This document shows positions 5,195 to 43,400 of a stretch of 47,519 bases of DNA, piece after piece. The DNA comes from Kineosporia corallincola (GTDB lineage Bacteria; Actinomycetota; Actinomycetes; Actinomycetales; Kineosporiaceae). Position numbers and translations under genes: made by a program. The DNA lies in NCBI RefSeq assembly GCF_018499875.1, contig NZ_JAHBAY010000026.1:1-47519 (forward strand). The letters are read 5' to 3'. The notes below the pieces were generated by a model that searched no databases, was not told the DNA's origin, and saw only the letters and a list, made by a program, of their open reading frames with translations. Position 1 is the first letter of the stretch; each line of letters starts with the position of its first letter.

Positions 5195-5224
5195 GAGCGG
5201 TGAAAGTACTTGGGGCGGTCGAAG

Positions 5225-5578: not shown

Positions 5579-5653
5579 GGGATTACTCCTCGCTCGGGCG
5601 GTCGTGGTCCCCCTCTTCCGGAGGCACGAACATCGTTATCTTCAGCAGGGACG

Positions 5654-8730: not shown

Positions 8731-8736
8731 GGTCGG

Positions 8737-8741
8737 CCTCC
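8737..8741 (-). promoter_or_regulatory. Ribosome binding site deciding the eccD start
   Basis: GGAGG on the minus strand, 6 nt upstream of TTG 8730. This favours the TTG start over GTG 8769, which has no comparable upstream purine run. Confidence 0.55.
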
Positions 8742-8980
8742 GTGTTCCGGGCTTGGGCCCTCCGCTCACGGATATTTGAAAAGGGGCCTCTCTGAATGGT
8801 TCACGTCAGCGTGACACGGGCTCGGCGGCACCGGCCGGGCGTACCGGCTGCTCTGCCTCTCCTTACGGCCAAGGCCACCTTCCGGGGCAGGCTGACGGAC
8901 CGCCGTTGTGAACCGGCGCAGGACAGCGGCCACAATGCGGGCAACAGACTGCCTCTCCCCCCGAGCGTGCGGCCTGACAC

Positions 8981-8988
8981 GAGAAAGG
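8981..8988 (+). promoter_or_regulatory. Ribosome binding site deciding the eccC start
   Basis: GAGAAAGG 9 nt before TTG 8998. It supports the TTG start, which gives the family-typical N-terminus. It partly overlaps a 5-bp stem (8983-8987 with 8991-8995). Confidence 0.5.
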
Positions 8989-8997
8989 CTCTTTCCC

Positions 8998-16843: not shown

Positions 16844-16844
16844 G

Positions 16845-21100: not shown

Positions 21101-21474
21101 AACGCCATCGACCCCTGCGGGCGGGCGACGACCGCGGCCCAGGACGAGCCGATCACCTCGCAGTCGTCCATGGCCAGCTGACCGCGCAGGATCTCGACGG
21201 CGGCGATGTTCTCGTCCTGGCCGTGCAGGACCAGCCCGGTCAGCTTCACCGCCTCGGCGATCGCCTTGATCACCGGGCCCCGGCGCGGCGTGATCCGGAC
21301 AGTGCCGCTCTCCTCGGCCGCGATGGTCACGATCTTGGAGATGACGAGGTTCTCCTCGTACCGCCCGGCCTGGACCGTGATGATCGCCCCGGACCTCGCA
21401 CTGCTCAGGGCTTCGCTGATGGTGCGGAAACCGTTCTGCTGGTCGGGGGAGACCACGAGAACCTGAGTACTCAC
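18169..21474 (-). CDS. Beta-helix domain fused to two EccA/CbbX-type AAA+ ATPase domains, 1101 aa
   Basis: Residues 1 to about 510 are a right-handed parallel beta-helix: an N-terminal 'FRTISEALSSARSGAIITVQAGRY' cap of the pectin-lyase-like kind, then roughly twenty rungs of 22-24 aa such as 'VIEDCVVEHLSTSAIVIAE'. After a short linker, two AAA+ modules of the CbbX/EccA type follow, each with GPPGTGKTT (about 600-610 and 880-890), 'GGVLFVDEAY' Walker B and an 'LASRFSR' sensor/Arg-finger segment. EccA proteins are cytosolic ESX ATPases that act on secretion substrates; here the usual TPR N-domain is replaced by a beta-helix and the ATPase is doubled. No signal peptide is seen. The start is GTG 21474 with AAGGA upstream. 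The role as the EccA equivalent is inferred from context. Confidence 0.93.
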   Translation of the reverse strand: MSTQVLVVSPDQQNGFRTISEALSSARSGAIITVQAGRYEENLVISKIVTIAAEESGTVRITPRRGPVIKAIAEAVKLTGLVLHGQDENIAAVEILRGQLAMDDCEVIGSSWAAVVARPQGSMALRDCRVTNRAGAGIVDSSDAGSVIEDCVVEHLSTSAIVIAERANTRVRAVIMRNAGGNGVCVNGQGRGTIEDCEISSTDKPGIAMEESSSTRISRTRVSDSSVGVYLGSESRVVMEDCVVSRSRGTGIALAAGTDPQLRRCRSEHSGGYGVHISARSRGVFEECEVSDSKLAGVWVGGMSGPTFTRMTVRDGHDSGVLLDEESVAEFDRLQIRDVAGAGIRVRGASNPLVRRSEITGTGGDGVLVVENSRGRMTALEIDGAGKAGVRIEDGAGPHLSNLTVRSSGGPGVVVGEKGVGVLREAEITAAGEDGLLVGTGGDLSVSRFRVRGSRKNGVMVAEGGRLSLNDGELVDSHGDGARVQSSESVTVLNVTATGNRGSGLRQLIPSDRVSVENFESRDNRAPDAYGTATADASSVSQGAAAESLAGDVAGPLAQLQALVGLAGVKQQVSSLINLNVLARRRAEAGMAALPMSRHLIFAGPPGTGKTTVARLYGAVLAELGALRSGHLVEVARADLVASIVGGTAIKTTEVFNRALGGVLFVDEAYALSPNDRGSGPDFGREAIDTLVKLMEDHRDDIVVIAAGYSTEMRQFLQSNAGLASRFSRTIEFENYSDDELVTIVETMCVSHDYELAPGVADALRLHFSRVVKDETFGNGRAARKVFEEMIDRQATRLANMPELSSEDLPMMLPEDVGVVAQRGAVGAGDDRLPALLAELHEMIGLATVKSEVGSLVELLSAMRRREQAGLPTPVINHHLVFAGPPGTGKTTVARLYGELLTAMGVLPRGQLVEVSRGDLVGRYMGQTAQLTRNAFESARGGVLFVDEAYTLTQTGRANDFGREAVDELVKLMEDNRDEVVVIVAGYSEQMRGFLESNPGLASRFSRHVTFENYTPEELVGIVGRHATMSGYELSAGARTELADHFATMSRGATFGNARYARQVLENMITRQASRLNRISAPSMNDLRSLEAADLATAKVT

Positions 21475-23704: not shown

Positions 23705-25429
23705 CTATCTGGCCCGCAGCAGCCACTTCTGGTCCTGGGCGGCGGTCTGTAGATCCCACTGCTCCACCAGGTACCCGTTCCAGGTACCGTCCGACTCCGG
23801 CGCCGGAAGGTCGTCACCGAACAGGTCCACCGCCTTGCCGGAGAGCCGGTTGGTGATCCAGACCGCGCCGCCACCGGCGTCCGTCACCGACCACTGCTGA
23901 TCGGCGTCCCCGGTGTTCACCGTCTCGACCACCAGCTTGGCCTGATTGTCGGCCGCACCGTCCTGCACGGCCAGAGCCATTCCCTGGAAGGCGTTCTCGA
24001 TGAGCACGTGCTCACCGTCCGGCGCCGTGACCAGTTTCCAGGTCTGGTCCGCGCCACCGTCGTCCGCCCACATCTGCACCCGGGTGCCCGGCCCCAGACT
24101 GCTGTCCTGATCGCCCGGAAGCTCGAGAACCGCCTTCGCCCAGAGATTCTCGAGATGGTACGTCTGGTTCGGGTCGTACAGGGAACTGGTCGTCGACGGA
24201 GCGGTCGTGGGCGTGTCCTGCCCACCGTCGCTGTCACCGTCGTCGTCATCAACGGGCGGGACACCGGCACCGGTGGACGGTTCCTGGCCCGTCTTCGTGG
24301 TCGGCGTGGCCGTGGCACCGGTCGACGGCCGGGCCGGGGAGGTGACCGCCGGCGTCGCCGAAGAGGTGACCGGCGCCGCCTGGCCGGCGGTCAGGCGGGT
24401 GTCCTTCTGGTACACCGGCACGAATACCGGCACGCTGACGGCGAGCTGGGAGACCGCGGTCCGCGGCAGCCCGCCCGCCTGCCGGATCACCTCCGGACCC
24501 CACTGGAGCGCCCCGAGCGCCAGGTCGAAGGCGTCCGCGTCGTGGAACGCGGAGAACTGGTTGACCATGTCGCACAGGGTCGCCGCGAGCGTCGAGATCG
24601 CGTCGTCCGGATCCCAGACCGACGCCTTGCTGCTCGCGTACTCCTCCCACAGGTCAGGGGCGAACTGGGCGATGCCCTCCCCCCGGGCGGTGCGCAGATT
24701 GGCGTCGAACCCGGAGGCGACGCCAAGGTAGGCGGCCACCCTGGCCGGCGTGACCTCGGCACACACCCGTCCGGCGTCGTTGATCCGGCTGACCAGGGCC
24801 TCCGGCACGGCGGTGGCCGAGGCGGTCTCGGTCGGCGTGACCGGCGTGGTGGAGAACGCGGCCTGGTCGGCATACCACAGGGCATATCCAGCGACGGTGT
24901 CGACGAAAGCCCGGGTCGCCGCGGGAACACCCTTCGCCGCGACCACGGCGTCCAGCCCATCGTGCTGGGCGGCGACCGCCAGCTCCCAGCGGTCACCGTC
25001 GACACCCGCTTGGCGGATCTGGCCGGCCAGCTCACACATCTGATGCCCCAGAGCCAGGATGTTCGCGGCGGCGTTGCTGCGGCTGACCTCGTCGGAGGGC
25101 TTCCACCGCTGCCACTCGGCGTCGCTCAGTCCGGCGATCCGGGCGCCGGAGGAACCGGCCGCGAACCCGGAGATCGCCATGAGCTGGCCCGCCACCCGGG
25201 CCGGGGTGAGGGTGGGGCAGGACAGCGCCGCGGTGACGACCGCCGGCATGTCCTCCTCCGGCACCACCCGGCCGGGGATCTTGTCCGCCTCGGCACTCGC
25301 CGACTGCAGGTTCACCGCCAGTGCGCCGAGCAGGGCGAGGACCACCACGACGGCGAGCAGCTCCAGACGACCGGCCGTCGTCGAGGCCAGTCGCCTCAGG
25401 GCGCGGGGCACTGTGCCGAACTTGCTCAT
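23705..25429 (-). CDS. Membrane-anchored protein with two degenerate transglycosylase-like domains and a ricin-type lectin domain, 574 aa
   Basis: A TM/signal-anchor helix (about 23-41) puts the rest outside the cell. Two related domains (about 60-190 and 210-345) have the order of lytic transglycosylase/lysozyme folds; the second reads 'ASGFDANLRTARGEGIAQFAPDLWEEY', matching the usual 'ESGF...GAxGIAQFMPxTW' except that the catalytic Glu is Ala, and the first has 'ISGF'. Both are thus probably non-catalytic peptidoglycan binders. A Thr/Ser/Pro/Asp linker (about 345-430) leads to a C-terminal beta-trefoil with QxW repeats (QTW, QQW, QKW) typical of ricin-B/CBM13 lectins. Start ATG 25429 has GAAGAG upstream; a longer start at 25468 is possible. 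It follows the giant gene by 69 nt. Inferred role: anchoring or opening the cell wall for the secretion apparatus or its giant substrate. Confidence 0.88.
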   Translation of the reverse strand: MSKFGTVPRALRRLASTTAGRLELLAVVVVLALLGALAVNLQSASAEADKIPGRVVPEEDMPAVVTAALSCPTLTPARVAGQLMAISGFAAGSSGARIAGLSDAEWQRWKPSDEVSRSNAAANILALGHQMCELAGQIRQAGVDGDRWELAVAAQHDGLDAVVAAKGVPAATRAFVDTVAGYALWYADQAAFSTTPVTPTETASATAVPEALVSRINDAGRVCAEVTPARVAAYLGVASGFDANLRTARGEGIAQFAPDLWEEYASSKASVWDPDDAISTLAATLCDMVNQFSAFHDADAFDLALGALQWGPEVIRQAGGLPRTAVSQLAVSVPVFVPVYQKDTRLTAGQAAPVTSSATPAVTSPARPSTGATATPTTKTGQEPSTGAGVPPVDDDDGDSDGGQDTPTTAPSTTSSLYDPNQTYHLENLWAKAVLELPGDQDSSLGPGTRVQMWADDGGADQTWKLVTAPDGEHVLIENAFQGMALAVQDGAADNQAKLVVETVNTGDADQQWSVTDAGGGAVWITNRLSGKAVDLFGDDLPAPESDGTWNGYLVEQWDLQTAAQDQKWLLRAR

Positions 25430-25458
25430 GCTGAACTCTTCACGCTCATTCGCCCGGG

Positions 25459-25475
25459 GACGTGTCATCCACGTC
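25459..25475. promoter_or_regulatory. Dyad between the giant gene and the ricin-domain gene
   Basis: GACGTG-N5-CACGTC, a perfect 6-bp inverted repeat, centred about 38 nt upstream of the ATG at 25429 and about 24 nt past the giant gene's stop. It is either a regulator site for the downstream genes or a short attenuating hairpin. No U-tract follows, so a terminator is unlikely. Confidence 0.3.
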
Positions 25476-25498: not shown

Positions 25499-28400
25499 TC
25501 ACAGCGGGTGCACATCCGTGGAAGAACTCGGGCGTGGGCGGTTGCTCCACGGCGTGGTCCAGCCGAGGTCAGGCAGGGAGGAGGCGTGCGCCGTCGGTGT
25601 CCCCGGCCGAAAGGGCCAGGTGGGAGGCCGCTTCTGGGCATCAGGCACGATCCGGGTGCCGGCCGGAATCGGGTCCTGCGGGTCGGACACGGACAGCCAG
25701 TCGGCAAACTGGCTCTGAAAGCCGTTCCCCAGCACCACGGCCCCGGTGGAACGGGCGCTCGTCACGGCGCCCAGGACGGTTCGCGCGGTGGCCCGTTGCT
25801 GCGGGGTCAGTTCCGCGGACCCGGGCAGATGCACGATCAGCCGCCCGGGCCGCGGAGGCTGCCGGTAGACGTCCAGACCGGGATGCGGGCGGGTGCCGTC
25901 GGCACGGGGGAACCACAGGTACAGGCCCGACGCGACGACCGCCACGACGGCGTCGTCCCGGGTGAACGATCCGGGACGCGTCCCCCGCGACAGCATCCCT
26001 GGCCGGAACAGGTCCGTGGCGACGTCCACCGGTTCGGGATCGCCACCGTCCTGGTCGAAGCGCAGCGCTCGGGCCACCGCGGCTACGGCCGGGTGATCAG
26101 CCGGGACGGCCTCGGTCAGCGCGGCCAGCTCGACGGTCACCGGCCGCTCCAGGGCACGGGCCAGCCGGTCGACGAGGTCGATCTGGATCGGGGCCGGCGA
26201 ACCGGTGGTCTCCGGCTCCAGCCGGTATCCGGTGCTGGGAGAGTTCAGCAGGAGCCGGCCGATACCGGGAAGCGGGATGGCCGGTTCCGCCAGGTGCCCG
26301 GCCCACTTCAGGGCCTGGTCCCAGGCGTGGTCGATCTCCTGCCTCAGCCGGTGAGCCTCCTCCACGACTGCCGCGCGCCGGGCCGACCGGGGCCGCGAGC
26401 CGGCGAAGTCGGCCTGGACGGCGGCGTACAGCGGCTCGGCCCGCCGGGCCAGTTCCTCCCAGGCACTGCGCAGTTCCCGCTCGGCCCGGTCGACCTCCGC
26501 GGTGATCGGTGGCGACGCGGCCGACCTCAGCCGGGCGACCTTCGCCGCGGCCTCGCCGACCACGTCCTCGAACAGCTGACCGAACGCGCCGAGACGTTCC
26601 AGGGGAGCGGCGTCGCCGGCCAGGTGGGCCTCGACGACCAGCAGGACCTCACGGGGGGTCGCCCGCATCGGCCGCAACGGCATGTCCTCGGGTTCCCGGC
26701 CCTGCCGTACGGCCTCGTCGTTCCTCGCCCTCCAGGCCCGCGTCTCCCGTTTCTCCTCAGCCATCTCGGCAGCCGTCCGGGTATCGGGGTACCGGGTGCT
26801 GTTCATCAACGCGAAGCCGGACTGGATCCGGGTGGGCAGCCGGGTCTCCGGCCCTCCCGCCGCTGCCTCGGAGCCGGCTGCATGCAGGCGGACCGAGGTT
26901 GCCGCCAACGCGTCGGACACTGTTCCGGATCGGTAGGCACTCGAATAGTGATCCAGGGCATTGAGCAGGTGCCCGAACTCGTGCTGGAGGGTTCGCCCGT
27001 TGGCGTCCATGCGGAGGTTGACGTAGTTCTGCGTTTCGCGTTGCACGCCCCGGCCGTCGACCGGTGACCAGACGTGCTGGACCACATCCGCCGGGCCACC
27101 GTCGAGGACAGCGTCGGTCCTGGCCCGTAGGTAGTACACGACGCCGTTGCGTATCACGGGCCCGGACCGGTTCCAGGAATCGGCTTTCCACACGTGATCC
27201 AGTTGGTGGAGGAGGTAGAGGTCTTCCAGAGTCACCCGGTCGTGCCGCGCGCGACGGATGCGGACGGAGGCCTCGACGACGACGACTTCTCTCACCTCGC
27301 GTCCCGGTACCGGATGGTCCCCCTCCGGCACGGTCACCGTGTGGGCACGCGTCCAGAACTGGGCCAAGGGGTGTGTGTGGAGCGAGTACGCCATTTGCTC
27401 GGCCCTCTGTGCCTGGGTCAGCAACTCCGCCCGGGAGTACCTACTGCCGGCCACGGCATCGGCCAGGGCGCTCTCCAGATCCGCCCGTACGTCGCCGGTG
27501 CGCCGGCGCGCCAGTCCAGGCAACCGCACCTCCAGCTGGAGCTGGGCCAGGCGCAGGCGGGACACCTGTTCCACCAGCAGAGGCCCCGGAGTGCGCAGCA
27601 GATCCGAGAGCCTGCCGAAACCGGCGACGCCGCTGCCGGACAGTGCCATCACCATCTCGGCCGAGACCCTCCTCACCGGGCCGGTCCGCCGTTCCAGGCC
27701 GGGATGCATCGGGTCCCAGCCGGCAACCTCGGACGGCAGCCGCCAGACCGGCCCTTCCGCGGGTATCTGCGGCCCGGCGGTGGAATAGGCCGGCACCGGC
27801 GAGTACCTGGGACCCGGCACGATCTGGTGGTCCACGTCGTCCAGCCAGTCGTAGACATCCGCGAGCTCGTTCGTGACCAGCTGGAAGACGTGGCTGTCGG
27901 CAATGTCCAGAACGACTTTCATCGTCGCGGGATTCAGCGTCTGATGCTTGACCGCGTCCCCCAGCGCAGGCGTCTGCGTCACGGCCATCCCCACGGGGAC
28001 CCGGTGCACATACAGCTGATGGGCCACCTCGAAGACGTCGTGCACCACGAAGACGTCGCCTTCGGGAATCGCGCCGACCGAAAACTCCCACGCCGCACCG
28101 GGCAGCAGGACGCGACGGTCGGGATGGACGTCGGACGTGCCGTCCGGTCCGAGGGTGACCTCGAGCCAGCCGCGTGTCCATTCGGTGCCGGCAACCGGCT
28201 GCGCCTCCACCCGCCCGTCCTCGTGCACCTTCAGGTCTTCGGCCGCGAACGTGTACGGAACGCGCGCGTTCTCGGCCAGTTCCCGGGCAACGTGCACGGG
28301 CAGGTTCGCCACCACCAGGGTGGCCCCCCGCAGGTTTGCCCCGTGCGCGGAGAAGAGCGACCTCAGTCGTGCCTGTACCTGCGGACGGCCCGCGTCCGCG

Positions 28401-31400
28401 ATCACCGGTCGGCCCTGCTCGTCGGTGAGAGCCACGTCCCGCCCGCCGTCCGGGCGGCTCCGCATCGCGGTGCCCGGGACGTCGGGTGAGATCGGCCATT
28501 CGTCCGGGGCCAGCCGGATCGGAAGGGTGGATGCCTCCGCCGGGTCGGGTGCCGCCACGAGGGGGTCCCGCGAGTCGGCCTGCGGACGATCCCGGACGGA
28601 AGCCGGCTCCAGCTCCGGGTGGGGCATCTGCTGTGGACGGGTTCCGTCGGGGCGGAAGCTCAGCCATGCCGGGCCCTGGCCGTCGCCCCGGTCCGCGAAC
28701 GCCGTCACCGGGCGTGCGGTGATCCGGGCGATCTCCTGGGCCAGGACACCGGATTCCGGCCGGAGAGGCTGATCGGCCGTCGCAACCCCTGTCGCCCGCA
28801 GCACAGTGACGCCCTTCGCGTCGGCGGTCAGGATCCAGCGGTCTCCCAGCGCGACATCAGAGCCGATGCCGCTGGGGGTCAGGGCCCGTGCCGTGATGGA
28901 AGGGCGAGTCGCTCCGGCTGCCATCAGCGCATCCGCCCGCAGTACCCGTGTCTGCCAGTACCCCAGCGATGTCCGGGCCTGCTGCCATCGGGCTCCGGAT
29001 GTGTAGTCGAGGGCGATTCCCGGCAGGCCCAGGAACCGCCGGGCCAGCGCCGTCCGCTCGTCGTCCGGTTTCCCGAGGTCTGTCAACCGGGCTCGCGCGA
29101 TCTCCTGGGCCGCTGCCAGTTCGGGCCGCAGCCGCCGGGCCACCTGAGCGGCTGCCCACATCGGCAGATCCTCTTGTGGGGAACGCGAGGGCCCGGGTTC
29201 GGGGGCCTCCGGCAGGTTGCGCAGGTCGGCATCCGCCTGGGCCAGGTCCACTGTCAGTGAGACGGCGGCCGACGGCTCGGGCAGGCCGGCGTTCAGCCAG
29301 GTCGCCAGCCGCTGGGGCGCCCGGCCCGGCTCGGCGATCCGTAGATCCGTCCAGCGTTCCCACGGCAGAGCGGCGAGGTGGTCGGTCATCCGGGTCCGTT
29401 GCCGGGCCGGCGGCTCACCGGTGTGAACCGGGTACAGGACGACGGGCTGACCCGGTGCGGTACCCCGCACCTTGCCGATCCAGCCGTGGAACTGGAGATT
29501 CGATCCCAGCGTCTCCACCGCCCGGGCGAACTCCGGTCTCGGCACCTCCCCCTGAGACTCGTTCTGCGACAACAATTCAGCAAACAAGGCACCCAGTCGG
29601 GCGACGTAATCCGTGTGTGCCTGGGCGAGCTGGTCCTGAGCCCTCCCGACGGCGTCCCGGTCCCCTTGGGCCGCTGCATCGTCGCTGGCCTGACGGGCTG
29701 CGTCGACGTCCCGGTACAGCCGGGCCTCCTCGTCCAGGAAGTACTGAGCTTCTCGCGGTGGCGCGCCGACCTCGGGGACGCCCGCGGCACCGGTGCTCTC
29801 GTCGCTGAGTTCCAGCGCAGTGTCTTGCGGAGCCAGTCCGAGAAAGCCTGATGCAACATGTGATTCGTCAGGGTTCTCGGCAAGCAGCTCCCCGAGCCCG
29901 ATCTCCTCGGCTTCCAGCAGTCGCCCGGCCGGACTGCGCACGACGACCTGCGGCCCCCGCAGGTCCACTTGCTGACCCCAGCCGTCTTCAGACCGCAGTT
30001 GCTCCGGAAGCTCGCCGAGTGGGCGCCACCCGCCTGCACCAGGCATACTCTCGTCCAGCCACTCCGGATCGCGGCTCGCACCACCCCGCACATCGTCGTC
30101 GGCCTCCAACCATTGCCGGGACCGCTCCGCCTGCGGCAACGATGAGCGGCTGGAGTTTCCTGTCGTTCTCGTCCCCCGGAGCCGGCTCCGGGGGACGTAG
30201 ATGGCGACGGCCTGCCGGTACCCCGGCTGGAGACCGTCCAGGACCGCGCGCAGGACGGTTCGGTGCTGAGGCGTCAGACGGGGATACCCTGGCACGTGCA
30301 GCATGAGCTCCCCCGGTACCAGGGGCTTGTAGTCCGGGTCGTACCCGAGGTGGGGGGCGCCGGGGAGGGAGAGCACCAGGCCGGAGGCCACCATGCGGAC
30401 CGGAACACCATTCACGGTGAACATAGTGTCTGCCCACATGTCAGGGGCGAACCTGCCCGGCAGGAACCAGTTCACCGCCACACCGGTCAGCAGCGGAGCG
30501 CTCCGTCCTCCGGGCCAGACCTTCATCCCGGTGGCCATGGCCACGTCTGCCTCCCCCGGGCGGGCGGTGCCGTCCGGGTAGAAATCCATCACCACCGGCA
30601 GGCCGAGACCGTCAGCCATGGCCCAGACCTGTTCGGGTGTCGGCCGGGGGCGCAGACCGTTCCACTCCAGGGTGTGGACGCCGTCGGGCCGGGGAATCAG
30701 GTACCCGCCCCCCGGGGCGGAGATCCGGCTCTGACCGGCCAGCACCGCGGACCGCAGCGCCTGCTGCTCGGCCAGTTCGATCTCGTGATCGATGCGTTCG
30801 GCCTCATGCGAGCGCTGGGCCTCGTGGGCCGGGCCCGTCGATGCCGGATCCGGTCGGGTCAGGTGAGCCCGGAACCGGCGCAACTGCCGTGCCTGCCGCC
30901 GCCATTCGCGATAAAGCCGGTCGCCGGCTGCATGCAGCTCTTGCGGTGTGGCCCGGCCGGCGGCTACCTCCCGCCGGGTGTGCTCGTAGTGGCTGGCGGC
31001 GGGAGCCACGTGTCGTTCGTATCGCTCGTGAGACCGCCGTAGCCGCAGCGGGGGTGCCTGGTCTCCGGCCTCGACCGCCTCCAGAATCATGAAAAGGTCG
31101 CGTGCGGTGATGATCTCGTTGTCATGCATCAGTGCCCCGAGCGGATCCAGATGCGTCGAGGGACGGACGACGCGGATTTCCGATGAGTCCTCCAGATGCC
31201 GGTCCGGGCGCACCCGGAGTCTCTCGTGGCGCAGCGGGTCGTCCGGCCGAGTTCCCCGGTTGGGATACCGGTCGGGCAGACCGAAGTGGTGGCCGTACTC
31301 GTGGGAGATCATGGAACCCGACGCATCGGAGCGGAGGTTGCCGCTGTCCTGCTCAAGCCTCTCCCGACCCTCGGGATCGATGGGTGGCCATACGTTCATC

Positions 31401-34400
31401 ACATCGTCGGCCGATAGGTTGCCTTCGGCCGCATGCTCGACCCGCATCCGGACGAAGAACATTTCACCGTTGAATGTCACCGGGCCATGCCCGTTCAGGT
31501 GCTTGTTCCTGCCTCCGGCTCCACGAACCTGCCAGGCGCTCAGTTCGCTCTCGGTCGTCGTCTGGCGCCGGCGATGTCTGGTGCGGGTGGTCAGTTCCAG
31601 CAGTGGCAGATGTCCCGGGAGGCGGTACACACGAGCCCGGTACTGGGGGGAGGGATAGAAGCCGAACGTGTCGTCCAGCCTGCTGGTCAGCTCGATCCGC
31701 TCTACCAGGTACCGTGCGTCGACACCCAGTTCCGGCTGCGTCCGCGCCCGGTCCAGGAGCGCCCGCAGCTGGGTCATCGCGTTCCCTTGCTGTTCGGCCC
31801 CTGAGCTCAGCGCGGGCTGCAACCGCCGGATCGCCGTGACGAGGTGCTGGACGATCGCCGGGGGCAGGTCGCCGGCGCTGAGCGCCGGCCACCACGACAG
31901 CGGTTCCGTCTCGATCTCCGAGCGCCGGAGCTGGGGCAGGCTGACGAGCCGGCCGGGGTTGGCCGCCCGCAGGGCGTCGGTGATGACGGGGGGCTGCACG
32001 TCAGTGGCAGGCGCCATCGGCATCCGCAGCGACGGGGCGTCGCCGAACGCCTGGCGCCCCGCGCGGGAGTACGAGGGTACCGACGGCGCTGTGCTCAGGC
32101 GACGCATGCCGATCCGGGCCGGCTCGGGCAGGATGCGCAGCAGCTGCTCATGGGCCAGTTCCTCCAGCACCGGATCGGAGACGTCGTAACTGATCAGGAT
32201 GGCGTCGGTGGGGCGCAGGCGCCGCCTCAGGCGACGGTGGCCGGAGCCTCGCTGGGGCCGGCCCGGGACGGGGATGGCGTCCGCCTCCAGGTCCCGCCCG
32301 GCCACCTGGGAGACCGCTATGCCGGCCGGGATACGGCGAAGATGGAGGACGTACTCCAGCCCCTGGGCGTCGATGACCACGATCGAGGACGGCAGGGTCT
32401 GCCGGGCCAGCGCCTCCTCCCAGGCAGGTGACGGGTCGAGCAGCCGTCCGGTGGCGGTGACCGTCCCAGTGGGTCCGGCCTCCAGCCAGCCCCGCGTCGT
32501 CGTGGTGCCCGTCACCGGCTGAACCGTTACCGTGCCACGGGACACTCCCAGCCCGTCCTCCGTGAAGTTGAGACGAATCCCGTTGTCTTGGGCCATTTTA
32601 CGGGCCACAGGAATCGGCAGGCCGGCCACGTACAGCGTCGCGCCGTCCAGCGCTCGCGCCTGGGCTGCGACATACCGGGCCAGGTCACGCTGATTCTCCA
32701 ACAGGCTGCCGTTCGCGATCGTCACCTGCCCCCTGTCGTTCGCCCAGGCCACCTGGGCCGTCCGCTGCGGTGACCGCTGTGCGGTGAAGCCACGAACGGC
32801 GGGTGGGACGGTTACTTTCAGCAGCGCCACGGCACGGCGCCGGGCCGTCGGGCCGGCCCCGGACTCGGAGTCGTACTCGGCACGGGGCTGCGGGACCGGC
32901 CTCGGCGCTGAACCGTCCGGCTGAAAACTGAACCAGGACGGGAGAAATCCGTCTGCGAGATCGGCGAAGGCAGTCACTGGCCGGCCTGCCTGTGTGGCCA
33001 TCTCCTGGGCGAGCAGCGCCGCCTCGGGCCGCCAGGGCTGCTCGGAGCGGGATGCGCCCGGCGCGTGCAGGAGCGCCTCCCCGTCGACGACGCCCAGATC
33101 CCATCGGTCACCGCTTCGCAGGTCGGCCACCATTTCCTGCGGGGTGAGCCGGGGCGCCCGTGGCTGGGCGCTCGAGAGTTGCCCGGCCCGGTCAACCAGT
33201 TCCTCCCGCCGCCGCAGGATCTCTTCGGCCTGTCGCATCCAGGCCTGCACCCGGGTTCCCTTTCCCGAGCCCTTCACCCCCGGGAACCGTTGAACCAGGG
33301 CCGTCAGGCGAGAGGTGCGCAGGCTCAGGTGCTCCCGTGCCGCGTCGCGTGATCCGGACAGCACGCGCTCCAGCCGCCTCACCGCCTGACCGGCCGCCCA
33401 GGCGGTGAGGCGGGATTCGACGACCGCGTCGTCCGTGGGCCCGGGCAGCGCCGAGAGCGTCTCCTCCGCGACGGCCGCCGCCGGCGAGCGCGGGACCGAT
33501 GAATCTTGCTGCACCAGAGAGTCATTCAGCATGACGACCAGCGGCAGCTGACGTAGCCGGGTGCCCACGGAGATGTCCGGCCATCGGTCGGCCGGCAGCT
33601 GCCCGATCCGGTCGATCATCCCGGCCCGCCATGCAGGTGTGTCGTGTGCCGACTCCACCGGTTTCAGCACCACTGCGCTGCCCGGCGAGCTGCGCCGCAG
33701 GACGCTCTGCCAGCGGAACAGCTCGATCTTCGCGTTCAGCGGCTCTGTGGCCAGGCCGAAGGCGGCCCGGTCCCGGCCGCTGCGCAGGTTCCGCTGCTCG
33801 ATCAGCTCGGGGACGACGTCTTCCATGGTCGCCGTGTAGGTGTCCAAGGCTCGTGTCAGTGCCTCCTCGCCGGCGCGGAGCGCCTGGGGGTCACCGGTGT
33901 CACGGGCAAGGGCGGCTGTCTGCCGGGCCGCCTCAACGGCCCGGAACGCTTGCCGTTCGAGGGTTTCGAAGTGGTGCGCGTCCAGCAGAGGCGCAGACGG
34001 CATCTGGTTGGCAGGGGCCGGTGGGGCTGTCCTCGGCCGATGTGCCGTCGCCGGGACCGACAACGCGGCGCGCCCACCAGAACCCGGCGGCGCCGGGCGG
34101 GAGGCCCCCTCCCCTTCGTAGGGCCAGCGCAACGGCTCCGGCGGCACCCTCGTGAAAGTTTCACGGGTGCGCGGGGCGACGGCCGTCCAGTCCGTGACGT
34201 CCCGGAACCAGTCCTGGAGCCGGGTCACGGTGCCGTAACCCTCTACCCAGACGAATGGCTGGCGCTCCACATCGAACCAGGCCAGGATCGTCCGCAGGGT
34301 CTGGCGCTGCCGGGCGGACAGTTCTCGTCCCTCGGCCCCCTGACGGTCGTCCGGTCCTTCGGCCAGCCCCCCGACCAGGACGTGCAGCCCGTCATCGCGC

Positions 34401-37400
34401 GGTATCGTCCGGGACTCGTCCATCCCCGGATGCGGATCGCCGGGGAAACTGACGGAGACCCCGGCCGGCAACACCCGCACGGTCGCGTCGTCCAGACGGA
34501 ACACCGCGGCACCGCCGGCCGGATCCCGTACCAGCGGATGGCCGGCCCGGAAGAGATCCCTTGCGATCCCTGCCATTTCGGGGTCTGTGCCGTCCGGCCG
34601 GAACCGCACATGACTGCCGGTGGGTTTGACGGGTCTTTTCACCGAGTGCTTATCGGTGAGCGAGTCCAGGTCCACCACGACCGGGCGGCTCAGGGCCCTG
34701 GCGAGCCGGTCCAGCAGGCGGAAATCGGCTCTCGCCGGCGTCACGTCCGGAGAACGGGGACGGGACTGCTCCTGCGGATAGCTCAGCATGTACTCACCGG
34801 ACTGCCGATCAAGGTCGAGCCGGCCGCCGTCCCACACCGGCATGGTCGGTTGCCCGTGCCGAGAACCCAGACCCAGCACCTGATCACGGGCCAGATCGGC
34901 CTCCTGCCGCAGCAGCTGGGCCTCGGTCAGCGCGGCCCGGTACGCCGACGAGAAGGGGGTGGACGCGTCCCGCTCGCGCACGATCTCGGCGAGCCGGGCC
35001 TCGGCGAACTCTGCCTGTCCTGTCCACGCCTGCTGGGCCGCGGCCAGAGCGGCACGCAACGGTTCGCCGGGCAGCTGATGCTCCGCAGTCTCGTCCAGCC
35101 TTTCCAGAGCCGGGACGACATCGGTCCAGTACCGGTCCTGCACCCGGCCCAGAGCCTCCATCCGGGCCTGATCACCGGCACGGTACCGCTGAATCAGCGT
35201 CAGGTAGTCCCGCGGTGACGGGCGTATCACGGTGGCCGGATCCAGGTGAGCGGCGTGCATCAGCGCATCGGGCGCGGCCACCCTCGACGGTGGCCGGGTC
35301 TCCGGTCCTCCACGGGCCGCGGCAGATCCCCGCGCATGGATCCGAATCTCTCTCCGGCGCAGCGGATCCTGTCCCTTCACCTGCTGCGGGTCGGGGTAGG
35401 CGTCATCGAGTCCGGCTGCCTGGTGACCCAGTTCGTGGTCGATGGTGAGCCGGTTGGCGTCCGACCAGAAGTTCGAGGCATCCGGGTCATACCGCTTCTG
35501 GCCCTCCGGGCCGACCGGTGACCAGACGTGGATCGTGCGGTGGACGGGGCGACCATCGCGGACCGGTTCGGATCGCAGGTGCACATACCAGATCTCACCG
35601 TCCACGTCGATCGGACCGGAGGCGTTCCACAGGCTACCGTCGGGGTCCTCCTGATCCCGGCGGATGCGCTCCAGGTCACCGGAGGTGGTCCGCTCGTGCG
35701 CCAGCAGACGGCTGCGCATCGTGTATTCCAGCACCCGGACCGATGCCACCGTCCGGCCAGGAACAGGCTGGGGGCCCTGCTCGGGCACGGGCACGGTGTA
35801 CTCCCGGGCCTCGGCGAAGGACTCCGGAAAGGCACGGACCACCCGGGCCAGATTCTGCCCGTGCGCCACCAGATCCAGAATGTCCTGCCCAGAAATCCTT
35901 TCCGAGGCAGCAGGCACCCGGGCCAGTGAATCCTTCAGGTCCTCGCGGACGTTCCTGGTCTGCTGGGGGGTCTCGAGGCCGCCGGCCAGGGCATGCACCT
36001 GGTGCTGCGCCGTCCGTAGCTGCTGCGTCTCGCTCTCCGTCAGCGGCCGGAACCCGTCGAGCAGGCTCCTCAGCTGGTCCGCCGTCACCTCGGAAACGTC
36101 CCGCAGAAAGACGCCCACGTGCGAGACCGGACGAGCCGGGGTGGCGTGCCGCATCGCGCTGACATCGGGCTGGAACACCGCCGCCTGCGCGGGAAGACGC
36201 CAGATCAGCCCGTCACCAGGCGGACGGTCCCCGGAACTGCCGAAAACGGGGAGAACTGAGATGCTCGGCCCGGCGGCGTACGGGACGCCCACCAGGAAGG
36301 GGTACCGGCCGGCCAATGCCTCCCTGATCCCTACCAGCATCGCGTAGTCCCGGACGTCCACCGTGACCAGAGGGCGGTTTCCGGGATCGGTCGCCAGAAT
36401 CCCGGGACCGGCGAAAGCACCGTCGGTTACAGCTATACCGGACGGCACGCGATGTAGGTAGAACTGGTGAGGCATCTTCAGTTCGTCGATCACGGTGAGT
36501 GGTTCAGCGAAATCAGCCTCGGCCAGATCTGTCTCCCAAGGCGGGGACGGGCTGAGGATTTTCCCGGTGACGACCACCGTCCCATCGGTGCCGGCTTCCA
36601 GCCAGCCTCGGGTCGTGGTCGTGCCGGGAACCGGCTGTACCACGATTGTGCCGTCCCGGGCGACCCGGAGCGGCTCCGCCGTAAAACGCAGACGGATTTT
36701 GTTGTCCAGAGCGATCTTCCGTGCCACCGGTTCCGGAAGATCCGCCACATAGACGGTCACCCCGTCCAGGATGCCTCCCTCGGTTCCGAGGTGGCGGGCC
36801 AGGTCCCGCTGGACCTGTGGCCGGCTGCCGTCCGCGATCACGACCTGACCGTCGTCGTCCACCCAGGCAAGTTCGAGTGTCCCGTCCGCCGTGGGCCGCG
36901 AGACGAACCCCTGGACGCCGGGCGGGGCGGAACCGAGAACCACCGTCCGGGATGCGGCCGCCAGGAATTCTGCCGGACCTGGCACCGAAACCGGTTGCGG
37001 GGCGAAGCCTTCCGGCCCGAAACTGAACCATGCCGGAGGCGTCCCGTCCCCGGCGAAGGCCGTTACCGGCTCACCCATCTGAACCGCGATCTCCTGGGCC
37101 AGCAGCGCTGCCTCGGGACGCCACGGCTGCTCGGTGAAGGATATACCGGGAGCCCGCAGGACCAGTTCGTCACTCAGTACGCTCAGGTCCCAGCGTCCAC
37201 CTTTCCGGACATCGGCCAGTACGGCGTCGGGGGTGAGCCGGGGCGCCAGAGGCGGCGTCCCGGCGAGCGCCACGGCCCGGCGGAGCATCTGCTCGCGGTG
37301 TTCCAGCGTGTCCTGGATCTGCCGCAGGCGACTGCGTGCGCGCGTTCCCTGTCCGACTCCGGGCAGGTCACGGAATCGCTCGGCCATGGCCGCCCGGCGT

Positions 37401-40400
37401 GACCGCTGCTCGTCGAGGTGGTCCCGGGCTGCGTCCCGGGACCGGGTCAGGACAGGCAGCAGCTCCTGGGCGAGGCGTCCGGCGGCCCAGGCGCCGAGAG
37501 AGGATGTCCCCGCGTCGGTCTCCCCCGGTTCCGGGGGTGCGGGCAGCGCTGCCAGCGCCGTCTCCGCGGCCACCTGGCCGTCCGGGACGGGCAGGGCTGT
37601 TTCCTGCTGCACCAGAACGTCGTTCAGCATCGCGGCCAGCGACAGAGAGCGGGGCCAGGCACCGATCGAGATGTCCTTCCAGCGATCCGCCGGGAGCTGC
37701 GCGATCCGGTCGATCATCCCGGCGCGCCATGCGGGGGTGTCGTAACCGGACTCGACCGGCTTCAGGACGACGGGAGTGCCCGGCGTGCTCCGGCGCAGGA
37801 CGCCCTGCCAGCGGTACAGCTCGAGTTTCGCGCTCAGGGAGTCAAGGACCTGGCCGACATCAGGGTCGGCCTGGCCGGCCCGCGGATCATGCTGCACGAC
37901 CAGATCGGCGACGATCTGCTCCATCGCCTTCGTGTAGCTGTCGGACGCGTGGGCCAGCCTCTCCTCGGCCGCCCGGACCGCCTCCGCCTCTCCGGTGGAG
38001 CGTGCGGCACCGAGTGCTTCACGTGCCCGGGTCACGGCGTGGAATGCCTGGCGTTCCTGGGCCTGGAGGAGCCCGGCGCCGGGAGGCGGACCGGGCGGGC
38101 GGTGGGCATCAGCGCCCGACGGGGCCCGGCGGGCGGGAGGACCGGCTACTGCACCGCGCGGCGCACTCGCGGTGGCTTGACCTACGGCGCTGTCCTCGCC
38201 GTGGTCATCGGGCTGCACGGGAGGCACGCCGTCCGGTGGGCCGGACTGCGGGGCGCTGTTGCCCGCCCCACCTGCAGGGCCGGGCTCGCCGGACGCGGGG
38301 GTGGTCAGCTGCCCTGGATCGTCGGGCCGGCCCAGACCGTGTGCCCGGACCAGGCTTCGGGCCAGAAGTTCCAGGGCACGAGGCAGATCCTGGGGCGAGG
38401 GGGAACCCGAGAGCACGGCCGCCATCTGCGCGGCGGTCACGACCGGCACCACCTCCCTACGCAGCCGGAGCACACGGGTGTCGTCCGGGTCGGTCAGATC
38501 CTCGTCGCCCGAGGCGGTGTGGACCGCGGTGGCCGCGGTCTCCACCGATTCCTGGACTCGTTCCAGCCAGGTCCCACCCAGCCCTGCCGTCCGCTCGACG
38601 GCCGTGCGTGCCCGGTCAACCATCTCCTTCCATTGCTGTCCGAAGGCCGTCGCAGCCGATGTGTCCGTCGGCCGCCGCCCGAATCCTGCCAAGAGCGCGT
38701 CGACGGCGAACGGCCGGACCTCGCCGAATACCTCGGCCGGGTGGGAGGTTCCCGGTTCACTGCCGGATCCGGTGACCGGTTGTGCTGTCTGCTCGACGAC
38801 CGCCCCGGTTCCCGGCTGGACGGTCCCGCCGGCCACCGCCGCCCCGGCGTCGATCAGCGCGGCGAAGACGGCATCGCCGCGGTCCGTGGCCTCGTTTTCC
38901 TCCCCGCTCTCGCTCTTCAGCCTCGCGGGAATCTCCGGGGATCCGGTGTTCCCGGTGGCCTGATCGCCCGGCGCCACCACCTGGTCCTCGAAACCTTCGG
39001 TCGCCTGTAGGGATTCCTCGTCCTCCTCGAGGATCGGCGCCAGCCTCGTGCCCGTCCGCCCGGTCACCGGCGGCCCCGCCTGCTCCCGGCTGGCCGTGGC
39101 CGCCACCGGTTCGGCCACGGCCGGTTCAGCCGTCACCGCTTCTGCCGGCAGCGGATCCCCTTGCGACGGCAGGGTTCCGGCGTTCCCGGGAACCTGCGGC
39201 AGGAAGGCGGGCAATCCGCCGGCGGTGAAGGAGGGAACCACCAGGGACGCCACCGGGGTGACGCCGGAGGCGGAGGGCAGCAGGCGGGTGCCGCTGCGCT
39301 GCGGTACTTTCCGGCCGACAGCGTCGAGCACCTTGCCGTCGGCACGGATCCGGTGCCGGGTCACGGTGCCGTCGGCGGCTGTGTAGTTCAGTTCCACGCT
39401 CCGGCCGGTGTTGTGAGCGATCACCCGGGCCACCGGCAGCGGGACGGACGGCGCCACGGTCAGCGCGTGCGGCAGTCGGACCCCGGGTACCCCACCCACG
39501 ACCAGAGCGAGCAGCTCGTCCGTGGCGGCGTTCAGCTGCGCGACCACGCCGGCGGGAGGGCCCTGCGGGGCGAACATCTGCTCCTCCAGCGTGGAGCGGT
39601 GACGGTCCTGGAAGGCGGTCAGCCAGGCGGCGTGGCCGGGATGGCTGGTGGACAGCTGGTCACCCGCCCAGCGCACGGCCTCGACGTAGCGGCTGTGCAC
39701 CTGATGGGCGGCCGAGGACATCAAGACCATGTGCGGGGTCCGGGCGTCCTCGATGAGCCAGCGGGAGGCGTCGTTGGCCCGGTCCAGGAGGTCCTGGTGG
39801 TCCAGCGCCGCCCGGCTGAGCAGTTTCTCGAGGTGGTAGCGGGGCGTGTGCTCGCCGGTCGTCGGCCAGGACGTCGGCGTCGGCGTGTGGCGGTCCAGCA
39901 GAGCCTGAAGGCGCGAGAACCGCAGCAGCTCGTCGTACTGGGACCGGTAGATCAGCAGGTGCGCCTCGCCGAGGAACCGGTCGCTGTAGCCCGTCCCGGT
40001 CGGGCCGTCGCCCAGCATGCCGCGGCGCACGGCCTGGATCTCGGTGTTGCCGAGGTAGTTCACGACCACCCACAGCATCGGCCCCTGTTCCTTGGGGTGG
40101 TGCTCGTCGCGTTTGACGTTGGCGTCCCGGGCCCCCTCGCCGTGGTCGGCAGCGAGGTCGGCCCCGGTCCCGCCGGCACCGTCCAGCGCCGGGTTCGACG
40201 TGACGCTCTGGTTCGGCGGGGCCGTCGTCGTGGGGCCCGATCCACGCCCCTGTGCGGGCAGGTCCCGCGTTCCGCCGTTCTCGACGACGTCCGTGATGTT
40301 GCCGTTCTGCCCCAGGGTCACGGTCAGCGACGGGCGCCAGGAGTCGACGCTCCTGGCGATCGTCGTGCCGATCTGGTGCTTGGAGTAACGCCCGACGCCC

Positions 40401-43400
40401 GTGCCCTGGGGCAGTTGCGCCACGACGCGCGGGTGGAAGAAGTCTCCCTGCATGCGCAGGGCCGCGCGCCGGCCCTCGTCCCCGCCGACGAAGATGTTCT
40501 CCATGACGAGGTGTTTCTTGCCGATCGTCTCCAGGATGTGGTCGCGCATGTGCCCGCGGGCCTGCAGCTGTTCCAGGGTGATGACCGAGCGCACGGACTG
40601 GTCGTTGGCGTCCTGCCCGAACATGCGGCCCAGCAGCTCCCAGGTCCTGGGTACCGCGTCGTCGAGGTCGACGGCCACCACCATCGCGTCGGCGGGCAGG
40701 GCGTCCAGGCGCACGGGGGTCAGGTCGTCGAGAGGCAGGGACTCGTCCACCGGGATCGCCAGGATCTCCGACCCGGGTTTGCGGGTCACCAGCGTGCCCT
40801 CGAAGGTGTGGAGGACCTCGTCGCCCAGGTGCTGGACGTCGCGGGTCAGGCCCGCGACGACATTGCTCAGGGGCCGGTTCACCATGTCCAGGCGGCGGAC
40901 CCGGACGGTGAGGTCGAACTCGTTGCGGAGGTAGAAGCCTCTCTCCCAGTCGTATCCGACGTGCTCCTGGGTGTGCTGGGCGGACTGGACGACCTCGCGG
41001 CGGTGGCCGGCGGACATGTCCAGCTGGCCTCCGCCCGAGGTTCCGGAGGTGGTTCCCTCGCCGCCGAGTCCGGTCTTGGGAGCGGTGAAGCCCCCGGCGA
41101 CGGACCGGGACGTGGACTGGCTGGACGCGGCGTACTGGTGGGCGTAGGTCTCCAGACCTGCTCCCTCCTCCATGCCGGTGATCTCGGCATCGGTAGTGAG
41201 CCGCATGCCGATGTTCAGCTCGACGGCGTCGGCGGCCACCCCGCCGATCCGGTTGAACAGGTAGAACGTGACGCCCCGGGTGTGCAGCAGGTCGTCGAGC
41301 ATGGCCTGTTCCCGGTTGCCGCCGACCAGGCTGGTCAGGAAGTCGATGCCGTTGGCCAGCTTTCCCACCACCGGCTGGTCGCCCCGGTACGCGCGGTACC
41401 AGACCTCCGGGATGCGCTCGGTCGGCCAGTCGGCCCGGCGCAGGCCGATCAGGCCGGGCACCGCCTGCTCCACGGCCTGGTGCAGGATGTCCACCGCGCG
41501 GATCCGCCGTGGCCTGTCTCCGATCCCGGCGGGTGGGCCGGGCACCTCGCCGGGCCGGACGTCCATCGACTCCACCCCGTGGATGCCCAGCGCCTGCAGG
41601 CGGCTGTCCTTTCTCATGCCGAACGGGACGAAGAGATCCCGCTCGGTCCTGCCGGTCGTGGCGAGGAACTGCTCCAGGGCGCCCTTGTGGGTCTTCTTCC
41701 GGTACGTCGCCACCTCGGCCAGGATCGCCCCGGCATCGGCGTGATCGGCGGCCTCGCGCTCCAGACGGTCCAGCACGGCGAGGATCTCGTTCTCACGCAG
41801 CGCCACGAGTTCGCCCTCGTGCCAGCGTGCGACGTACTTCCGGACGACGTCGATGTCGATCGGGAGCTCCGGGTGACGCCCGTAGGCGGCCAGTGCCCGG
41901 GGTACGGGCAGCAGGTACATGAAGGTGCGTGGTCCGAGGGTCTCGCTGTCCGGATGCACCCGGCGGGGCCGCAGTTTCCCGTCCACCTGCTCGACGGTGC
42001 CGACGTCGAGTGTCAGGGTCGTGGTGAAGAAGAGGGCGTCGTAGAAGCTCAGCGGCAGTTGTTCCTTGCCGTGCGTCTTCGACACGGACGTCCCCTGTCC
42101 CCGGCTGACCCGCGCTGTGGCGTCCACCTCCCCGGAGACCGCGCCCACGGCGCTGCCGTCGCTGAGCGGGCCCCCGGCCCGGACACCGGCCGAGAAGACC
42201 CAGTCGCGCTGGATCCTCTCCGAATGGGAGGCCTGGCTGAGCCACAGCCGGATCTGGCTGGCGACGAACTTGCCGTCCGAGGCACCGGAGTAGAACGAGG
42301 GTCCGATGGTTCCCTTGATCCCCAGGCCACCGTTCGTGTGGGAGATCAGGCCCGGGGAGAAGAGGCCGCCGGTCTGGTACTCGTCGTGGAGGAAGTCCGG
42401 GACGAACGAGCGCATCATCGTGGTGCTGCCCAGGTTGGCGATCTGCTCGTCGGACAGCTTGCCGACACCGGTCAGGGTCGGGAACATGTCCCGCAGCAGC
42501 GGCACCAGCCCGGTGGTGTCGAGGTAGTAGACCAGCGCCTTCTCCAGCACCGCGGGATCGGTCGCAGGAAGCGCGTCCAGGGCCGGGTCCAGGGGATCGA
42601 ACTTCTCCAGGCCGATGTCGGGAAGGACGAACACGGTGGCGTGGCCCTCGACCGGATCGCTGTGCCAGGTCAGCGTCTTCTGCTCGGCGGCCCGCTGAAC
42701 CGCTCGCTCGGCGCGGGCCTGCACCAGCTGTTCGCGCGCCTGCCTCTTCTTCTCCAGACGCAATTGTTCCGGCGTCAGCTGCACCGGCCGGGGCTTGCGC
42801 AGCTTTCCCTGCCCGCCCGGCCGGCGTGACTCACGCCCGGGCCGGGGGTGCGCCGTGTCGCTGGGCTCGGGCCGGCGTTTGCGCAGTTTCGCCGGGCCGG
42901 CGCCTTCGACGTCACGCGCGATCCGGAACTGGTCCTTCTTCCGGCGCCGGCGCTGCCCCTCGGCCCGCCTGGCCAGACGCTCCTGAGCGGCCTGCGGCAG
43001 GTCGTCGAACGTGAGGGTGGCCCCGAACCGGCCGGGCAGTCTCACGGCGTCCTGGTCGCCCGGCGACTCCAGCAGCTCGGGGTAGTTCCCGATGAAGGAG
43101 CCGCTCTGCCCGGCTCCCTTCGTCCACTGCCGGTCCACGCCGGCCGTGACCATCTGCAGCAGGTCGCTGCCGGCCTGGAACCGGCCGCCCAGGGTGATGC
43201 TCCGGGATCCGGAGACACCGTGACCGGCGCTGGTCGATCCGATGGACAGGTTGACGCTGTGCATGTGCGGTGTCGTGTAGAGGTAGTAGTCGCCGTTCGG
43301 GTCGAGGTTCTGCTCGGCCCAGACGAGAAGCCTTGCCGTGTGCGTGATCCCGATCTGGTCCACGGCACGCAGGACGACTTCCAGCCCGTCCTGGAAGATC

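What the first reader, a model, noticed from the sequence alone, without database searches (positions are those of the whole stretch)
25502..38080. Three tandem metzincin/snapalysin-like protease modules in one giant T7SS-linked protein
Seen: three modules of about 1.4 kaa share several co-linear blocks, and each has a HExxHxxxxxD site followed about 55-60 residues later by a Met-turn-like ALM(H/N). HExxHxxGxxD is the site of snapalysin (known). Module B matches fully; A and C vary at the Gly. Inference: a triplicated protease polyprotein, with one copy under strongest constraint, exported by the adjacent ESX system. I know of no described T7SS substrate with this architecture.
Basis: partly seen in the sequence, partly recalled or inferred. 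Interest (0 to 1): 0.93.

Follow-up and report, generated by a model that had tools for sequence, protein, structure and literature searches.

The report
Giant secreted protein with three proteases
A soil actinobacterium, most likely a Kineosporia, carries a giant protein next to a type VII secretion machine; it holds three protease-like modules of a kind that also turns up, often several per protein, in giant proteins of other actinobacteria, and that may be an exchangeable cutting tool used against other cells.

Summary
One minus-strand frame (25499-47485, 7328 aa, still open at the contig end) has three homologous modules of about 1.3 kaa, each with HExxHxxxxxD and an ALM Met-turn 58-59 residues downstream. 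eccB, eccC, eccD, a mycosin-like and an eccA-like gene lie nearby. Genus: most likely Kineosporia. In the window the catalytic domain passes no Pfam or NCBIfam cut-off; M6 and snapalysin (M7) resemble it over 21-31 residues, and one copy from another genus does pass the M6 cut-off. A motif-masked profile found 64 copies in the fetched ORFs: of 55 that span the site, 50 keep HExxH and 48 also the Asp. 11 of 25 such ORFs carry two or more, in chains up to 23,998 aa. 'Triplication' fits only the front scaffold: the catalytic domains of A and C belong to one old subfamily and B to another, and module A is a mosaic (0 of 2000 shuffles). Giant multi-toxin actinobacterial proteins, one with two metallopeptidases, were described in 2012, so this is a new variant of a known kind. 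Fold prediction failed (pLDDT 58 and 50); zincin structure and activity are inferred. Best reading: an ESX-exported multi-warhead effector.

The parts
25499..47485 (-). giant ORF (P0001), 7328 aa from the first ATG; the frame stays open to the contig end (7339 aa), so the true N-terminus is missing
34205..38113 (-). module A, aa 3125-4427
   Evidence: BLASTP A-B and A-C; alignment
30239..34051 (-). module B, aa 4479-5749
25694..29764 (-). module C, aa 5908-7264
35117..35770 (-). metzincin-like domain of module A (HELGHQAAGLDDA; HExxH at 35423-35437; Met codon 35258-35260)
   Evidence: profile A1, E 2.2e-61; A1 was built with this row
31007..31645 (-). metzincin-like domain of module B (HEYGHHFGLPDRY; HExxH at 31289-31303; Met codon 31127-31129)
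   Evidence: profile A1, E 2.6e-66; A1 was built with this row
26678..27316 (-). metzincin-like domain of module C (HEFGHLLNALDHY; HExxH at 26969-26983; Met codon 26804-26806)
   Evidence: profile A1; A1 was built with this row
36488..36490 (-). best-supported recombination breakpoint in module A (aa 3666): upstream B-like, downstream C-like
   Evidence: maximum chi-square 45.1, 0 of 2000 shuffles; block identities; trees
39326..45478 (-). long unit, aa 670-2720, shared at about 42% with another Kineosporia giant (G005:C25) and, for aa 820-2547 in four segments, at about 30% with a giant of G174
23705..25468 (-). ricin-type lectin protein, next gene downstream of the giant
   Evidence: Pfam PF14200, E 4.3e-18
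18169..21474 (-). EccA-like protein: right-handed beta-helix region plus two AAA+ domains with lids
   Evidence: homologue present in 10 of 13 fetched regions compared; the name EccA-like is inferred from context
16845..18164 (-). mycosin-like subtilase
   Evidence: Pfam PF00082, E 3.2e-30; the mycosin name is inferred from context
8908..12975 (+). EccC, FtsK/SpoIIIE ATPase with three matched stretches
   Evidence: Pfam PF01580, E 1.5e-87
7315..8769 (-). EccD
   Evidence: Pfam PF19053, E 1.8e-74, and PF08817
5654..7312 (-). EccB (start taken at the internal Met of the longer mechanical ORF)
   Evidence: Pfam PF05108, E 2.4e-93; Met position
5225..5578 (-). small WXG100-like protein, 117 aa
   Evidence: size and position only; not scanned against a library

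Best explanation
The window encodes the C-terminal 7.3 kaa of a giant effector of an adjacent ESX (type VII) secretion system in an actinobacterium, most likely Kineosporia. Its last 4.2 kaa are three modules, each a long conserved scaffold plus one zinc-metallopeptidase domain of the metzincin type (HExxHxxGxxD, Met-turn). Proposed mechanism: an N-terminal WXG100-like domain (off the contig here) takes the protein to the ESX channel; the EccA-like AAA+ partner and EccC feed it through; the nearly cysteine-free chain folds outside; the domains act as multiple, exchangeable proteolytic warheads against proteins of competing cells. Shown: three modules, motifs, their conservation in relatives, gene neighbourhood, module mosaic, co-occurrence with toxin domains in one relative. 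Inferred: fold, zinc, catalysis, export, target. Modules evolve by copying and by recombining scaffold and catalytic halves.
For: Module homology. A profile built from 33 copies with the 13-residue active-site stretch masked found 64 matches; of 55 that span the site 50 keep HExxH and 48 also Asp; Met is aligned in 41 of the 50. In the Kineosporia frames 28 of 31 matches keep HExxH and all 28 keep Asp and Met. Of 22 site-spanning copies not used for the profile 17 keep HExxH and 15 also Asp. 11 of 25 ORFs with intact copies carry two or more. N-termini: 4 of 6 scanned frames that carry the domain pass the WXG100_2 cut-off. EccB, EccC, EccD, a subtilase and an EccA-like protein lie in the window; EccA-like genes lie in 10 of 13 other fetched regions. 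A 19,630-aa relative with two copies also has Scabin-like (3 stretches) and EndoU domains (15,000 of its 19,630 aa scanned). 1 Cys in 7328 aa. Recombination. GC by codon position fits coding in this frame.
Against: Both structure predictions were poor (pLDDT 57.7 and 50.4) and no Foldseek match reached E 0.001, so the zincin fold is not shown. Profile-profile similarity to M7 and M6 covers 31 and 23 columns around HExxH. No Pfam or NCBIfam cut-off is passed by the window's protein, so no second toxin domain is shown in it, and immunity genes were not searched for. The N-terminal export domain is off the contig; two scanned domain-carrying frames (G5c, G3b) show no WXG100 match, and the G174 N-terminus falls below the cut-off (24.7 against 27) when scanned as a 5000-aa piece. 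One relative has three copies with a broken site, and seven outside copies have Leu at the Met position. Several relatives are not Cys-free: 11 in G5c, 12 in G256, 11 in G111. The first profile's seeds were chosen by HExxH, so their H, E, H conservation is by construction.
Confidence: 0.6

Rival explanations
1. The metallopeptidase domains are processing enzymes: after export they cut the giant chain, or its neighbours, into separate parts, as Zhang et al. propose for HINT, PrsW, caspase-like, papain-like and PVC peptidases in polymorphic toxins.
For: Several domains per chain spaced about 1.4 kaa apart; in G005:C25 the module lies N-terminal of a long unit that is N-terminal of the modules in the window protein, so position is not fixed. 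Processing roles are argued in PMC3482391 (passages read).
Against: In the window protein all three modules are C-terminal and only 64 aa follow module C; Zhang et al. place processing peptidases N-terminal of the toxin. Two giants have five copies each, more than one cutter would need.
Confidence: 0.2
2. The modules are mainly structural or adhesive repeats of a giant surface protein, with a peptidase fold that has lost or is losing function.
For: Module A has an insertion in the site and module C lacks the Gly; the K. babensis-type giant G4 has three copies without the second His. A ricin-type lectin gene is adjacent.
Against: 50 of 55 site-spanning copies keep HExxH and 48 keep Asp with a profile blind to the motif; unseeded copies 17 and 15 of 22. 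Such conservation is not expected of a scaffold.
Confidence: 0.12
3. They are nutritional or developmental exoproteases like snapalysin and the M6 proteins of the same organisms, merely fused into a long chain.
For: Closest motif matches are M6 and snapalysin, and one copy outside the genus passes the M6 cut-off (25.3 against 22 bits); the same genome has two M6 open frames of 813 and 866 aa.
Against: Size, ESX neighbourhood, WXG100-like N-termini in relatives and toxin domains in the same chain of one relative fit an effector better.
Confidence: 0.08

Closest known systems
Giant multi-toxin proteins of actinobacteria (Zhang et al. 2012, PMC3482391; passages read)
   Same: Proteins over 10,000 aa in actinobacteria that combine peptidase and toxin domains; for one Streptomyces protein the paper lists two anthrax-lethal-factor-like metallopeptidases, two caspase, three ADP-ribosyltransferase and one MCF1-SHE domain, so two metallopeptidases in one giant are already in print.
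   Different: Here the repeated domain is one metzincin-like family, up to five intact copies per chain; in the window it sits in modules of about 1.3 kaa that recombine. I did not examine the proteins named in that paper, so whether its 'ALF-like' domains are this family is open.
Immune inhibitor A, peptidase family M6
   Same: HExxHxxGLPDxY (alignment A8); best sub-threshold Pfam match of module B (17.6 against 22 bits); one copy from G249 passes the cut-off (25.3 bits).
   Different: Similarity confined to 23-31 residues around the site in module B and 44 residues in the G249 copy.
Snapalysin, peptidase family M7
   Same: HExxHxxGLPD zinc motif with Asp as third ligand and a Met after it; a Trp-Asn pair before the site is invariant in A7 and present in 20 of 31 Kineosporia copies, not in module B, which has Leu-Asn.
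   Different: Small single-domain exoprotease (recalled); Met 20 residues after the first His (A7) against 58-59 here; no PF02031 match in the own genome.
Peptidase toxins Tox-MPTase1-5 and HopH1-like domains of polymorphic toxins
   Same: HExxH metallopeptidases used as toxin domains, some with T7SS delivery (table entries seen).
   Different: The entries seen give HExxH with other residues (such as F[DE] or [DE]N), not HExxHxxGxxD with a Met-turn; no direct sequence comparison was made beyond the Pfam scans.

Membership tests
Metzincin-type metallopeptidases | HExxHxxGxxH/D zinc site | tested here: met
   B matches fully; C has Asn and A an insertion at the Gly; 48 of 55 site-spanning copies keep HExxH plus Asp
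Metzincin-type metallopeptidases | Met-turn downstream of the site | tested here: met
   ALM at 58-59 residues in all three; Met in 28 of 28 intact Kineosporia copies and 41 of 50 overall, seven of the rest having SLLG
Metzincin-type metallopeptidases | metzincin fold | tested here: inconclusive
Metzincin-type metallopeptidases | zinc-dependent proteolysis | not testable with these tools
   needs protein
Snapalysin (M7) | match to PF02031 over its cut-off | tested here: not met
   own genome has no match at E 0.001; 2 of 22 A1 members match weakly, best E 0.02
Snapalysin (M7) | conserved Cys pair | tested here: not met
   two Cys are invariant in A7; the window protein has one Cys, at aa 84, outside the modules
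Peptidase M6 (InhA) | match to PF05547 over its cut-off | tested here: not met
   window module B 17.1-17.6 bits against 22; of 10 other copies scanned singly one passes (G249, 25.3 bits), two lie at 19.5 and 21.0
ESX/T7SS substrates | N-terminal WXG100-like or other T7SS export domain | tested here: inconclusive
   N-terminus off the contig; of 8 giant N-termini scanned 4 pass the PF25547 cut-off, one is 0.5 bits short, three show nothing; 6 of the 8 frames carry the domain, 4 of them pass
ESX/T7SS substrates | gene inside an ESX locus | tested here: met
   eccB, eccC, eccD, subtilase, eccA-like in the window
ESX/T7SS substrates | ESX-dependent secretion | not testable with these tools
   needs a mutant and a secretome
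Giant actinobacterial multi-toxin proteins (Zhang et al. 2012) | over 10,000 aa with several toxin or peptidase domains | tested here: inconclusive
   window protein at least 7328 aa, truncated; eight other fetched frames exceed 10,000 aa and carry the domain, one with Scabin-like and EndoU domains
Anthrax-lethal-factor-like metallopeptidases | match to a lethal-factor model | tested here: inconclusive
   no such family among the Pfam matches of 22 and 16 members; I did not check that the library holds one
Polymorphic toxin systems | adjacent immunity gene | not tested
   no search for immunity families was made

The most novel reading that the evidence does not exclude
A divergent metzincin family serves as an interchangeable cassette in giant type VII effectors across actinobacteria: chains of up to 24,000 residues, up to five intact copies per chain, catalytic and scaffold halves swapped between modules by recombination. 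The result would be an array of different proteases on one secreted cable, exported with the help of a dedicated EccA-type AAA+ motor.
Probability: 0.4. Interest if true: 0.8.

Novelty: new variant of a known kind. Interest (0 to 1): 0.62.

Why it matters
If right, type VII systems of soil actinobacteria export very large proteins that carry several proteases each. That bears on how ESX channels and EccA motors handle such long substrates, on what these systems do outside pathogens, and on how toxin arrays diversify by recombination. Most copies scanned pass no metallopeptidase cut-off in Pfam, so such domains may often go unnamed in genome annotation (inference).

Tried and rejected

Simple triplication rejected for the catalytic domains, kept for the front scaffold. 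Chance rejected by shuffles.

The first wide search listed 58 of 394 genomes, but many matches cover only 20-35 residues around HExxH and at least one lies inside an M6 protein (G153:C5:521493-521561, within the M6 match); I do not count those as members. Of the 28 first seeds two (G5c_1582, G5c_5517) looked spurious, three (G4_7404, G3b_1905, G5c_10498) straddled fetched stretches and G5c_2837 was left out as divergent, so A1 holds 22 of 28. The site counts leave out 9 of 64 matches that end before the site. The G174 copy at aa 3842 is misaligned by three residues and counted as not keeping the motif although HEFVHGLG is visible. The tree used 48 of 64 (length of at least about 150 aa; rows of six fetched regions left out beforehand). 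The front-block tree used 6 rows, three of them the window's; one shorter match was left out. The frames searched were fetched because they hit, so '11 of 25 with two or more' is not a random sample.

One viral-contig scan found no relative. Alignment A5 had four rows on the wrong strand and was replaced by A7. Literature: searches returned no paper; some searches listed papers of which I read passages of PMC3482391 only; PMC4791881 (ESX evolution, holds the word Kineosporia) and the others were seen as listings.
Full report
What is there. The window is the complete contig C26 (47,519 bases) of an 8.2-Mb genome. A single minus-strand frame runs from 25499 to the contig end; from its first ATG it encodes 7328 aa. 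GC content by codon position (0.74, 0.52, 0.85) fits coding in that frame. 79 bases at its start recur, 97% identical, at the end of contig C28, where another open frame of 3835 aa begins with the same 24 residues. The assembly therefore breaks inside a sequence shared by at least two long genes, and the true start probably lies outside the window.

The observation. BLASTP shows three homologous modules: A aa 3125-4427, B 4479-5749, C 5908-7264. HExxH begins at aa 4017, 5395 and 6835, with Asp at the expected place and ALM(H/N) 58 or 59 residues after the first His. Shuffling the protein 2000 times never gave the combined pattern. The first 3050 aa show no BLASTP similarity to the modules at E 0.01.

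Known families. Against Pfam and NCBIfam the window's protein gives only matches below the cut-offs: M6 17.1 bits (cut-off 22), the NCBIfam M6 domain E 1.9e-8 but 34.5 bits against 110.8, snapalysin E 0.08, and a papain-fold deamidase 16.7 bits (24.1) near the N-terminal end, besides chance-level names. A 22-row profile (A1) of the catalytic domain finds snapalysin best among solved structures, E 0.002, over 21 residues. Profile-profile comparison gives 96.3% with snapalysin over 31 columns and 94.2% with M6 over 23. Of ten copies from other frames scanned singly, one (G249) passes the M6 cut-off with 25.3 bits over 44 residues, two lie just below it, and seven show no match at E 0.01. The likeness is real at the active site and not demonstrable elsewhere; M6 and M7 are the nearest named families.

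Relatives. A 990-aa query from module B hit 5 of 58 genomes, the window's own included; all five belong to its genus, of which six were searched. The frames hit are 5,413 to 23,998 aa long. Two contigs were named by an independent scan, Kineosporia mesophila JCM 16902 and Kineosporia babensis JCM 31032; their lengths equal those of G002:C1 and G004:C12. The genus Kineosporia for the window is inferred from that. A second profile (A9), with copies from other genera, matched 24 of 394 genomes of the class at E 1e-5, 13 of 138 genera; the weakest of these matches cover only the site. Outside Kineosporia the frames range from a few hundred to 19,630 aa.

Conservation. I built a profile from 33 copies with the 13 residues from HExxH to Tyr replaced by X and searched all fetched frames. 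Of 64 matches 55 span the site; 50 keep HExxH, 48 the Asp too, and Met is aligned in 41 of the 50. In the Kineosporia frames 28 of 31 matches keep HExxH, and all 28 keep Asp and Met. Seeds had been picked partly by HExxH, so the fairer figure is for copies not used in the profile: 22 span the site, 17 keep HExxH, 15 also Asp; three of these 22 had been seen in the first HExxH scan. Three copies in the K. babensis-type giant have lost the second His. Six copies in G111 and G345 and one in G421 have Leu where Met is expected (SLLG). Eleven of 25 frames with intact copies hold two or more, up to five.

Module history. In a tree of 48 domains the catalytic domains of A and C join G4_8060 and G5a_15664 (support 100/98), and B joins G5b_2494 (100/97) within a group that also holds copies of K. 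mesophila, K. babensis and G005. The two types thus predate these species (inference). The front block tells another story: A, B and C group together apart from three G005 copies (100/99), with A and B as sisters (100/100), in a tree of six rows. Identities agree: A-B 57, 51 and 52% in three front blocks against A-C 32, 39 and 41%; A-C 38 and 43% in the catalytic and C-terminal blocks against A-B 34 and 26%; the linker (A-C 29, A-B 25%) and helical block (30 and 30%) differ little. A maximum chi-square scan puts the break at aa 3666 (136 A=B and 50 A=C sites to the left, 82 and 126 to the right), reached by 0 of 2000 shuffles. The front scaffold was copied or homogenised within this lineage, while module A carries a catalytic half of the C type: a mosaic, not a plain triplication.

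Neighbourhood. Downstream lie a ricin-type lectin protein, two LuxR-type regulators, an EccA-like protein (beta-helix plus two AAA+ domains), a subtilase, a 1296-aa protein without Pfam match, EccC, EccD and EccB and a small WXG100-like protein (by look only). EccA-like genes occur in 10 of 13 other fetched regions. Eight N-termini of giants were scanned: four pass the WXG100_2 cut-off, one is at 26.5 against 27 bits, three show nothing; two of the eight (G4b, G3a) lack an intact copy of the domain, so 4 of 6 domain-carrying frames pass. The G174 N-terminus drops to 24.7 bits when scanned within a 5000-aa piece. That 19,630-aa giant also has Scabin-like (3 stretches) and EndoU nuclease domains (15,000 of its 19,630 aa scanned), and the K. 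babensis-type giant a Gln_deamidase_2 match at 27.5 bits against 25 (5,000 of 23,998 aa scanned).

Interpretation. Size, ESX neighbourhood, WXG100-like N-termini, scarcity of cysteine (1 in 7328; 0 in G5a, G3a, G5b and G230, 1 in G0b and G4, but 11 or 12 in G5c, G111 and G256) and company of toxin domains fit an ESX-exported multi-warhead effector. Conservation of the zinc site fits active peptidases; B is the safest candidate, C has a Gly-to-Asn change found in two other intact copies, and A an insertion seen otherwise only in two broken copies. Processing peptidases remain the main rival. Structure, zinc, catalysis, secretion and target are untested. The class of giant actinobacterial toxin proteins with peptidase domains is in print (PMC3482391, passages read); I found no paper on this domain or these Kineosporia proteins in seven searches of a library that holds open-licence papers only.

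Noticed in passing
G004:C12:447972-519965 (loci L024-L028): One open frame of 23,998 aa with a WXG100-like N-terminus, three intact and three broken copies of the domain and 1 Cys.
   Followed up: partly
window 18169-21474 (-): EccA-like protein with a right-handed beta-helix region fused to two AAA+ domains; homologues in 10 of 13 fetched regions, about 50% identical in two genomes outside the genus.
   Followed up: partly
window 39326-45478 (-): A 2-kaa unit outside the protease modules, shared at about 42% with another Kineosporia giant and at about 30% with a 19,630-aa giant of G174. Function unknown.
   Followed up: no
G199:C1:2785155-2787188 (L093): A 678-aa frame of another family of the order carries a single copy of the domain (HEFGHMIGHPDEY), a small candidate for biochemistry.
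   Followed up: no
window 816-4241 (-): A 1141-aa protein with Asp-rich thrombospondin-type-3-like repeats (below cut-off) and a DUF6799 match.
   Followed up: no
window 13046-16936 (-): A 1296-aa protein without Pfam match whose C-terminal 200 aa or so recur in 5 of the 9 other Kineosporia regions compared (G002C1, G003C1a, G004C12, G005C25, G005C9).
   Followed up: no
G111:C1 and G345:C1 (L145, L150): Six copies (three per genome) with HELTHQLGLRDEY followed by SLLG instead of SLM, very alike among themselves, which suggests recent duplication.
   Followed up: no
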